Virus record (IMG/VR): IMGVR_UViG_3300044846_001842
Location: 1 to 64,000 of that record
Source of the DNA: a virus
DNA: 64,000 nt
Reading direction: 5' to 3' (one strand)
Of this stretch, positions 54,098 through 55,923 are shown one piece after another (within the stretch, counting starts at the first letter, position 1; each line of letters starts with the position of its first letter). A program made the translations under genes and the position numbers. The notes under the pieces are model-generated. The model did not search any database. It saw only the letters and a program-made list of their open reading frames with translations, and was not told the DNA's origin.

Positions 54098-54949
54098 CTA
54101 AAAAATGTATCTAATTGTTTCTAAGGGAAAATACTTAGAATATAGTTCTTTAAATTGTTGAATTAAACTGTTTTTGAATTGCCATTGGTATCTAATATTA
54201 TCAGCAGCATACTGAGAGTTTTTAGACTCTTGAATTGTAGGTTGCCAAAGGTAATAGTTAACATCAGCTTTATTCCTTGAAAATTGATTTACATTATAAG
54301 TCATAAATATACATTCTGACTTAAAATCAATGCCTTGTAGTTGTTTAAATAATTCCTCATAGTCTTCTAACCAAGTAGGATAGTAAACTATAGGACTGAA
54401 ATTTATATGCACTTCCATTTTTGTTTGAAGTATAGGTATCATAGCAATTCTATCAGCTATGCTGTCAGTATTGGGTTCTAAGATACTTGATATAAATTGG
54501 GGCATAAGACTTACTCTTATTCTATGCTTACCCGGAGTCAAGTTATACTTTTGTAGCTTAAACTTTGTTGGGTATTTGGTGGCAAAAGTTGTTTTCAGTT
54601 TGTATTGTGTATTGAAGAAATCAAATACCTGTTGCCAATTATAGTGTTTACTATGTAAAGGCACATCAGTACTACATCCTATATCAACACAATAATAAGT
54701 GTCATCTACTTGATTAGGTTCTTTGGGCCAAGGCTTAGTGTCTACCCAGTCATAAATAGATCTTAGAATTTGCTCTGTGTTTTCATTGATATAAACCTTG
54801 TCATGATTATACCTACCTACATAGCAATTATGAGTAAGAATGTTATTAGCAAAGTAATTTTCATTATCTTTTACAGCAAAGTTATAAAAAATTTTGCTAT
54901 TTTTGTTGTCTAAAATCTTACTGATTCTCGTAATTTTTAATTTTCTCAT
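54098..54949 (-). CDS. C-terminal half of split spore-photoproduct-lyase-like radical SAM enzyme (carries intein C-part)
   Basis: This 283-aa protein has residues 1-41 as the C-part of an intein, ending YFANNILTHN with Asn41 before Cys42 (HN|C, the splice site). Block-F-like FAVKDNENYFANN is clear. The C-extein (42-283) starts CYVGRYN and continues DTYYCVDIGC, FATKYPTK, RIRVSLMPQ, EPNTDSIADRIA and MEVHINFSPIVYYP, the order of strands in spore photoproduct lyase. The N-part (55525-55923) supplies the remaining FeS cysteines. Splicing would give 39 + 242 = 281 aa. The start codon lies two bases from the opposite-strand HNH gene start. Confidence 0.85.
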   Translation of the reverse strand: MRKLKITRISKILDNKNSKIFYNFAVKDNENYFANNILTHNCYVGRYNHDKVYINENTEQILRSIYDWVDTKPWPKEPNQVDDTYYCVDIGCSTDVPLHSKHYNWQQVFDFFNTQYKLKTTFATKYPTKFKLQKYNLTPGKHRIRVSLMPQFISSILEPNTDSIADRIAMIPILQTKMEVHINFSPIVYYPTWLEDYEELFKQLQGIDFKSECIFMTYNVNQFSRNKADVNYYLWQPTIQESKNSQYAADNIRYQWQFKNSLIQQFKELYSKYFPLETIRYIF

Positions 54950-55806
54950 TATGTTAATTTTTTACTCTCACATTGAAGCAGGAAAACATTTTAAATGTGA
55001 TCCAAGGACTGCAAAAAACAATCTACTCAATACCCAATACGTTATTGACAAATCTTCAGAGTATAACCCTAATACTTTATTTAGAACCTGTAAAAAATGT
55101 GAAAATAAATACACTTCTTCTAAAGGTAGGGCAGGATACTGTCCTAGTTGTAAAAATAAAATTTCTAAAAAAATATTAAATAGAGTTTGTAAAATCTGTA
55201 GTATTACTGCAACTAATATCAACCCTGTGTCTTTAAAATCTTGTATTTGTAAAAAATGTTCTCAGACAGGGATAGGAAGAAAGCTTCAAGCAATTTTTAT
55301 TTCAAATTTACAAACAGGTGTAAACAACTCTAATTTTGTACATGGTAATTCTACAATAAAAATATGGCAAAACAGTAGATGGGTAAAACTAAGAAAGAAT
55401 TACCCAAATAAAGTTTGTTTAAAATGTGGTAAAACAACTAATATACATTTACATCACATAATTCCTCAATGTTTATTACCTCATGAAGAAAAGTTTAACT
55501 TAGATAATATAATACCTTTATGTTCTAATCATCACAAAGAACTTCATCATCTTCAGTTAGATATTGTGCTTCTACCCAGCCTTTACCTACAATATAAAAA
55601 GGATGCTCAGCAGTTACAACAATTTTTTTACCTTCAACCTCAATTTCAATCCATGAGTTTGACTCCCTTGAAAAAATATGATGACATTTCTTTGGTTCAA
55701 CTAACTCCAAAGAATTATTATAAGATAATACAAAAGTGTCATCCTGAATTTTTTCAACAGGAATTTGCCCATTTGGTGTAGAAATTAGTGTGCCTTTTTC
55801 TACACA
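54827..55806 (-). mobile_element. Naturally split intein with an internal opposite-strand homing endonuclease
   Basis: Intein N-part: codons 40-132 of the gene at 55525-55923 (55806 down to 55528), 93 aa. It begins CVEKGTLISTPNG (block A) and has VTAEHPFYI (block B, with the T-x2-H) and WVEAQYLTEDDEVL. Intein C-part: the first 41 codons of the gene at 54098-54949 (54949 down to 54827). Together they are 134 aa, the size of a mini-intein (Hint fold), split where inteins usually carry an endonuclease domain. The HNH gene lies exactly there, reversed. Cys1, His-Asn and Cys+1 are all present, so splicing competence is likely. Confidence 0.85.
54951..55781 (+). CDS. HNH endonuclease on the opposite strand inside the split intein
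   Basis: This 276-aa protein is read from ATG 54951. An upstream in-frame ATG at 54894 would overlap the C-part gene and I reject it. Two zinc-ribbon-like parts come first (TCKKCENKYT, YCPSCKNK; VCKICSITAT, CICKKCSQ). The HNH core follows: CLKCGKTTNIHLHHIIPQC and DNIIPLCSNHHKELHH, with the conserved His, Asn and His. The residues after about 197 lie antisense to the intein N-part and look like readthrough rather than a folded domain. As the homing partner it would cut intein-free alleles. Its strand is opposite to the genes it interrupts, and the gap at its start is one base. Confidence 0.85.
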   Translation: MLIFYSHIEAGKHFKCDPRTAKNNLLNTQYVIDKSSEYNPNTLFRTCKKCENKYTSSKGRAGYCPSCKNKISKKILNRVCKICSITATNINPVSLKSCICKKCSQTGIGRKLQAIFISNLQTGVNNSNFVHGNSTIKIWQNSRWVKLRKNYPNKVCLKCGKTTNIHLHHIIPQCLLPHEEKFNLDNIIPLCSNHHKELHHLQLDIVLLPSLYLQYKKDAQQLQQFFYLQPQFQSMSLTPLKKYDDISLVQLTPKNYYKIIQKCHPEFFQQEFAHLV

Positions 55807-55923
55807 ATATGATTTCATACACCCTCCTAAACAGCCATAAATAAAATTAGGAGAAATAGCATCACTGCTTCTCCCATTATCTCTAGTTACTAGGGTTTTA
55901 GTCTTTTGTTTCTTGATTTCCAT
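55525..55923 (-). CDS. N-terminal half of split radical SAM enzyme (N-extein plus intein N-part)
   Basis: The product is 132 aa. N-extein residues 1-39 end with YGCLGGCMKSY (Cys31 and Cys35). Intein residues 40-132 start CVEKGTLISTP and end with VLCDD and a TAG. After trans-splicing the FeS motif reads Cys31-x3-Cys35-x4-Cys40, where Cys40 is the C-extein's first residue. This spacing is unusual (canonical CX3CX2C), so an additional feature or a variant cluster is possible. The 3' 257 bases are antisense to the tail of the HNH gene. Its start overlaps the upstream gene by 26 bases. Confidence 0.85.
   Translation of the reverse strand: MEIKKQKTKTLVTRDNGRSSDAISPNFIYGCLGGCMKSYCVEKGTLISTPNGQIPVEKIQDDTFVLSYNNSLELVEPKKCHHIFSRESNSWIEIEVEGKKIVVTAEHPFYIVGKGWVEAQYLTEDDEVLCDD

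What the first reader, a model, noticed from the sequence alone, without database searches (positions are those of the whole stretch)
54098..55923. Fractured gene: naturally split intein with an opposite-strand HNH endonuclease in a radical SAM gene
Two genes together encode one enzyme: the first ends in an intein N-part (93 aa, blocks A and B), the second begins with an intein C-part (41 aa, ends HN|C). The break lies at the usual endonuclease position, and an HNH endonuclease gene, transcribed the opposite way, fills it. Known fractured genes with split inteins have a free-standing endonuclease between the halves. I recall the endonuclease being mostly Vsr-like; an antisense HNH inside the intein of a crAss-like phage seems to be a new form.
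Basis: partly seen in the sequence, partly recalled or inferred. Interest (0 to 1): 0.88.

Follow-up and report, generated by a model that had tools for sequence, protein, structure and literature searches.

The report
Split intein with antisense overlapping endonuclease
A small mobile element cuts a phage repair-type enzyme gene into two genes whose protein halves should splice back together, and the DNA-cutting enzyme thought to spread the element is written on the opposite strand of the same DNA that encodes half of the splicing domain; the same arrangement sits at the same spot in 40 other phage sequences.

Summary
An SPL-family radical SAM gene is split into two genes. The first ends in an intein N-part (93 aa); the second starts with an intein C-part (41 aa). 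An HNH gene lies between them on the opposite strand. Joining the exteins gives 281 aa, and intein-free relatives encode that product uninterrupted.

(1) It is a family: 40 more viral contigs carry the same architecture at the same codon, just before the third cluster Cys.

(2) It looks mobile. Elements are 84-98% identical while both exteins are 56-81% identical (one recombinant pair apart). A near-isogenic empty allele (95-96% flanks) shows exact insertion plus a replaced stretch of about 60 nt, as homing leaves behind.

(3) The HNH gene is not merely between the halves. Its last ~75 codons run antisense through almost the whole intein-N. All 28 unique intein-N sequences keep that frame open, and synonymous variation collapses exactly in the overlap (0.08, versus 0.43 just before it, 0.24 in intein-C, 0.45-0.54 in exteins).

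In 41 other fractured-gene loci the ORF between the halves was always on the same strand. Trans-splicing and cleavage are inferred, not shown. New variant of a known kind.

The parts
55807..55923 (-). N-extein of the SPL-family radical SAM protein (39 aa; holds cluster Cys 1 and 2, GCLGGC)
   Evidence: TIGR03886 positions 62-95; 85-100% identical to 36 intein-free viral alleles, 59% to the most distant one
55528..55806 (-). Intein N-part, 93 codons (Cys1; block B TAEHPFY..GWVEA); stop TAG at 55525-55527
   Evidence: TIGR01445 33.1 bits; PT-HINT E 4.7e-6; 36-48% identical to other members of the family
54951..55781 (+). HNH homing-type endonuclease gene, 276 aa: N-terminal HTH-like segment, Cys pairs, HNH core (HHIIP..N..HKELHH), antisense-coded C-terminal tail
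   Evidence: PHROG HNH families E 3-4e-8; 37-40% identical to homologues at the same place in relatives
55525..55781 (.). Antisense overlap of HNH (residues 192-276, including conserved H195, H199, H200) with the N half (its last 85 codons and the stop)
   Evidence: Open-frame, antisense-conservation and synonymous-constraint tests
54827..54949 (-). Intein C-part, 41 codons, ends ILTHN; its ATG is 1 nt from the divergent HNH ATG (the two overlap as CATG in nearly all relatives)
   Evidence: TIGR01443 over cut-off; PF14890 profile positions 120-155; start codons
54098..54826 (-). C-extein of the SPL-family protein (242 aa; begins with the third cluster Cys) and stop codon
   Evidence: TIGR03886 positions 92-346, E 1e-46
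54827..55806 (.). The whole inserted element (980 bp; 965 bp in 46 relatives, 968 in one)
   Evidence: Exact junction against intein-free alleles; lengths
54898..54905 (+). TATTTTTG, a match to the Bacteroidota -7 promoter box (TAnnTTTG; consensus from general knowledge); candidate promoter for HNH inside the intein-C coding sequence. Hypothesis only.
   Evidence: The same box lies 42 nt from the intein-C ATG in 24 of 27 unique intein-C sequences. Not tested further.

Best explanation
A mobile split-intein element (980 bp) sits in a phage SPL-family radical SAM gene, exactly before the third Cys of its iron-sulfur cluster motif. SHOWN from sequence: the host gene is broken into two genes with intein halves at the break; an HNH gene runs the other way, its start codon abutting that of the C half; its last ~75 codons are written antisense to intein-N, and both readings of that DNA are under purifying selection; the element has moved between diverged SPL alleles. 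INFERRED: the two halves are translated separately, associate and trans-splice into a 281-aa enzyme with a complete cluster motif; the HNH protein, expressed from its own antisense promoter, cuts or nicks intein-free SPL alleles near the insertion point; repair copies the whole element together with some upstream flank.
For: Profiles for both intein halves and both exteins. 37 intein-free alleles with an exact junction; 78 of 80 further SPL relatives empty and none with an unsplit intein. Same architecture in 40 other contigs. Homing signature: element 84-98% identical against exteins 56-81% (recombinant pair L056/L057 excepted: N-extein 75%, element and C-extein identical). L046 against empty allele L099: 96% and 95% flanks, but only 39 of 60 nt just upstream. 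Overlap: HNH frame open in all 28 unique intein-N sequences, other antisense frames average 4.2 and 5.1 stops; synonymous mismatch 0.43 before, 0.078 in the overlap, and in the HNH frame 0.27-0.34 over residues 31-195 falling to 0.05-0.19 over 196-270; third-position variable sites 8/83 in the overlap against 16/39 in intein-C (P 1e-4) and 104/183 in the HNH core (P 3e-14); window against L046 antisense similarity 5.5 SD above a synonymous-resampling null. gp41-1 intein-N without such an overlap shows the opposite ratio (synonymous 0.160 at aa divergence 0.079).
Against: No splicing, cleavage or expression data. The HNH tail has no confident predicted fold (pLDDT below 50) and no known relatives outside the family. 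HNH profile scores are modest, and the relative L046 has no Pfam or HNH-PHROG hit over 0.001-0.01. The resampling null ignores shared ancestry, so its z-scores are inflated; a second antisense frame also exceeds it mildly (z about 2.5 against 5.5).
Confidence: 0.86

Rival explanations
1. The synonymous constraint in intein-N reflects a nucleotide-level feature (RNA structure, regulatory or recombination site), not antisense protein coding; HNH ends functionally at its HNH motif and its tail is an unselected run-on.
For: Third-position constraint alone does not say what is constrained; a second antisense frame also exceeds the null mildly; the tail has no confident fold.
Against: Between lineages 36-50% identical in sense, antisense amino acids are best conserved in the HNH frame, the only antisense frame kept open. 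The constraint starts at the HNH stop codon. The tail is more conserved than the HNH core (aa divergence 0.138 against 0.207).
Confidence: 0.05
2. The element is inherited vertically and no longer mobile; it merely evolves more slowly than the exteins.
For: Overlapping genes evolve slowly; the window's own element is divergent (about 46% intein-N identity to most relatives), so no recent arrival is shown for the window itself.
Against: Synonymous divergence outside the overlap (HNH core 0.27, intein-C 0.24) is also about half that of exteins (0.45-0.54); near-isogenic empty allele and recombination borders within about 60-110 nt of the insertion; occupied and empty alleles occur at one site.
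Confidence: 0.05
3. The halves do not splice; the gene is either dead or works as two associating polypeptides (genes in pieces, as described for Aeromonas phage Aeh1 nrdA).
For: No splicing observed; precedent for split genes without splicing (PMC3653736).
Against: Splicing residues (Cys1, block B, C-terminal HN, Cys+1) are intact in window and relatives; the break lies inside the cluster motif, so unspliced halves could not carry all three Cys in one chain; exteins stay conserved and in frame.
Confidence: 0.04

Closest known systems
Fractured genes with split inteins and a free-standing endonuclease (Dassa et al. 2009, NAR, doi 10.1093/nar/gkp095; paper not held, description from memory; examples gp41-1, RNA-ligase and DnaE types read here)
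   Same: Host gene broken into two genes, intein halves at the break, endonuclease ORF between them.
   Different: In 41 of 41 comparison loci the longest ORF between the halves is on the same strand and not inside intein-N. Here HNH is antisense and shares ~250 bp with intein-N; host gene (SPL) and site also differ.
Antisense homing endonuclease genes in nuclear group I introns (I-DsqI, Didymium squamulosum L2066; PMC9548176)
   Same: Endonuclease gene on the strand opposite to the host gene, inside a self-splicing element.
   Different: RNA splicing of an rRNA gene, His-Cys family. Here the splicing element is itself protein-coding, on the other strand of the endonuclease gene.
Intein-containing Rv2578c-family radical SAM protein (NCBIfam NF038136)
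   Same: Intein at a corresponding place of a radical SAM protein: the L046 N half matches the model across extein and intein.
   Different: One 574-aa protein model; not split, no antisense gene known from the model.
Introns and inteins of crAss-like phages (Yutin et al. 2021, PMC7886860)
   Same: Mobile splicing elements are frequent in phages of Bacteroidota.
   Different: The passages found describe co-directed, contiguous inteins (e.g. TerL); SPL is not mentioned and no antisense endonuclease in a fractured gene was found in them.

Membership tests
Naturally split intein | N-terminal and C-terminal splicing motifs on two separate genes | tested here: met
   TIGR01445 and TIGR01443 both over cut-off on separate ORFs
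Naturally split intein | Exteins together form one protein, known without intein | tested here: met
   37 intein-free alleles, exact junction
Naturally split intein | Trans-splicing activity | not testable with these tools
   Needs co-expression and mass spectrometry
Fractured gene (Dassa et al. 2009, recalled) | Host gene in two parts, intein halves at the break, endonuclease gene between the parts | tested here: met
Fractured gene (Dassa et al. 2009, recalled) | Endonuclease ORF on the same strand and separate from intein coding sequence (true of all comparison loci here; whether it is part of the definition could not be read) | tested here: not met
   Opposite strand, 257-bp overlap; comparison 41 of 41 same strand
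HNH endonuclease | HNH motif recognised by family profiles | tested here: met
   PHROG HNH families E 3-4e-8; H163 H164 / N183 / H192 / H196 invariant in 25 homologues; PF01844 below its cut-off
Homing element | Occupied and empty alleles at one site, element more similar than flanks, co-conversion footprint | tested here: met
   (in relatives; not for the window's own copy)
Homing element | Endonuclease cleaves the empty site | not testable with these tools
   Needs an in vitro cleavage assay
Overlapping genes | Both frames under purifying selection in the shared stretch | tested here: met
   Synonymous collapse in both frames confined to the overlap; antisense conservation strongest in the HNH frame
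SPL-family radical SAM (host gene) | Match to an SPL model over cut-off | tested here: met
   PF20903 38 bits, cut-off 27; TIGR03886 159.6 bits for the C half alone is below its equivalog cut-off 437.55

The most novel reading that the evidence does not exclude
The antisense overlap is adaptive: because the host needs the intein to splice, the C-terminal part of the endonuclease cannot decay without harming splicing, so the element is protected from the loss of its endonuclease that the homing-cycle model predicts. The HNH tail would then be a protein domain born by overprinting the antisense strand of an intein. In line with this, no element with a broken HNH frame or without HNH was seen (0 of 27 unique 965-bp elements).
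Probability: 0.35. Interest if true: 0.88.

Novelty: new variant of a known kind. Interest (0 to 1): 0.82.

Why it matters
Inteins normally carry the endonuclease inside the same reading frame, or lose it. Here the two functions are coded on opposite strands of the same DNA, in one lineage of mobile elements, with selection visible in both frames. That gives a natural test of how selfish endonucleases avoid decay, an example of antisense overlapping genes in which both products have a recognised family, and a new set of natural split inteins (Cys1 / Cys+1) for protein ligation.

Tried and rejected
Single-protein scan with the window HNH found nothing: its patterns were too strict; the alignment scan found 37. 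INPHARED phages hold no relative of the SPL C half, the HNH, the L046 C-extein or the L046 HNH. GTDB genomes: no HNH relative. AlphaFold2 for HNH, two alignments: tail below pLDDT 50, so no fold search was run. L010 looked like another intein near SPL; it is a separate, classical fractured RNA-ligase gene next door. L016-L018 seemed to match intein-C but are intein-free. Scripts that failed or were wrong and not used: time limit; pattern error; off by one, corrected. L230 counted the C half itself as gap ORF and is left out (41, not 42). Dassa 2009 not held; searches for SPL + intein and for split intein + HNH + phage genome + trans-splicing gave no paper. Assembly artefact and frameshifted ordinary intein rejected: the layout recurs in 40 contigs.

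Full report
Observation. The N half (55525-55923) carries 39 aa of extein and a 93-aa intein-N; the C half (54098-54949) carries a 41-aa intein-C and 242 aa of extein. TIGR01445 and TIGR01443 pass their cut-offs, and both exteins fall on adjoining stretches of TIGR03886, the SPL family of radical SAM proteins. The insertion is between the Tyr and the third Cys of GCLGGCMKSY|CYVG, so neither half alone holds the whole cluster motif.

Empty sites. A scan with the C half gave 37 viral contigs; all encode N- and C-extein in adjoining codons without any intein. The nearest (L002, L003) are 90% identical over 281 aa. A second scan with the C-extein of a relative gave 80 loci: 78 empty, two with the split element, none with an unsplit intein.

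A family of elements. Scanning with intein-N alone gave 13 SPL loci with the same layout. An HNH alignment gave 37 contigs, these 13 among them, all with the layout in the SPL gene. A last scan with an intein-N alignment added L235, L265 and L270. That makes 40 contigs besides the window, a few of them cut by contig ends. Element length is 965 bp in 46 fetched loci (some contigs fetched twice), 968 bp in one and 980 bp in the window. The other inteins returned sit in other genes; apart from L302-L304, which have long antisense open frames but contiguous host frames, none has a long antisense frame over intein-N.

Mobility. Between SPL alleles whose exteins are only 56-81% identical at nucleotide level, the element is 84-98% identical; the pair L056/L057 is the exception that shows a border, with element and C-extein identical and N-extein 75%. 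L099 is a near-isogenic empty allele of L046: 96.0% over 1540 bp upstream, 95.2% over 793 bp downstream, no element. But the 60 nt just before the insertion are only 39/60 identical, as expected when repair copies donor flank with the element. L056 and L057 are 99.2% identical over 3572 bp beginning about 108 nt before the insertion, and 74-85% further upstream. These footprints are in relatives; the window's own copy is divergent and shows no recent event.

Antisense overlap. In the window, HNH codons 192-276 lie antisense to the N half; invariant His residues (H195, H199, H200) lie within the overlap. (a) The frame is open through intein-N in all 28 unique sequences (no stop between nt 28 and 273), while the other two antisense frames average 4.2 and 5.1 stops; synonymous resampling gives an open frame with P 0.005-0.056 for single elements. 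These are not independent. (b) Third positions: among nine closely related elements, 6 of 8 vary before the overlap, 8 of 83 in it, 16 of 39 in intein-C, 104 of 183 in the HNH core. Across 27 elements, synonymous mismatch is 0.43 (intein codons 1-8), 0.078 (10-85), 0.24 (intein-C), 0.45 and 0.54 (exteins) at similar amino-acid divergence. Read in the HNH frame, it is 0.27-0.34 in residues 31-195 and 0.05-0.19 in 196-270. (c) Between lineages 36-50% identical in intein-N, the antisense amino acids in the HNH frame exceed a synonymous-resampling null by 2.9-5.5 SD; the second antisense frame by 1.7-2.8 SD; the third not at all. Shared ancestry inflates all of these, so frame contrast and the sharp borders weigh more than the z values. 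(d) The gp41-1 intein-N, without such overlap, shows more synonymous than amino-acid change (0.160 against 0.079), the reverse of this family (0.079 against 0.176).

Other compaction. The start codons of HNH and C half overlap as CATG in 26 of 27 HNH sequences and are 1 nt apart in the window. The first 15 HNH codons are also synonymously constrained (0.053), probably by start signals of the C half on the other strand. A TAnnTTTG box lies antisense inside intein-C at a fixed place in 24 of 27; this may partly follow from conserved amino acids and is only a promoter candidate.

Comparison. Of the gp41-1 type loci, 38 have an ORF between the halves, mostly GIY-YIG-like, and the longest is on the same strand in all; so too in three RNA-ligase loci. 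L058 (DnaE type) has a same-strand nuclease-like ORF. Antisense endonuclease genes are known in nuclear group I introns (PMC9548176), where the other strand does not code for protein. The library holds no paper with SPL and intein together, but Dassa et al. 2009 could not be read, so priority of the antisense form rests on this survey and on memory.

Mechanism. Shown: architecture, exact insertion, family, horizontal movement in relatives, dual-frame selection. Inferred: trans-splicing, target cleavage, antisense transcription, function of the HNH tail.

Phage. The record is 80,106 bp; its capsid protein is 82% identical to Flavobacterium Fipvunavirus phages. Some records with the element have capsid proteins only 24-31% identical to it, so the element occurs in quite different phages.

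Noticed in passing
L010:4748-7272 (362-kb contig): Right beside an intein-free SPL gene lies a classical fractured gene: RNA-ligase halves (KLDG|C), split intein, same-strand Vsr/PDDEXK-like endonuclease. Three more inteins in the same record (L041-L043).
   Followed up: partly
L276:2743-4498: A different radical SAM gene carries a split intein at the same cluster motif (CLGNCSF|C..) with a short same-strand ORF between the halves; the third cluster Cys looks like a repeated intein target.
   Followed up: partly
L178-L226: gp41-1 type loci carry a GIY-YIG-like ORF plus variable extra ORFs (one resembling a DNA methyltransferase in L202, L203, L212); several have an almost empty 235-bp gap.
   Followed up: no
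L048:5757-6344; L051:2108-2737: A second free-standing HNH/AP2-like ORF directly follows the C-extein in some relatives.
   Followed up: no
element nt ~785-845 in the family (upstream of the C-half ATG): Strongly conserved stretch ctTTTTTGTAATTTTACCACAAT upstream of the C-half start, antisense to the first HNH codons; probably a start or promoter signal, not identified.
   Followed up: no
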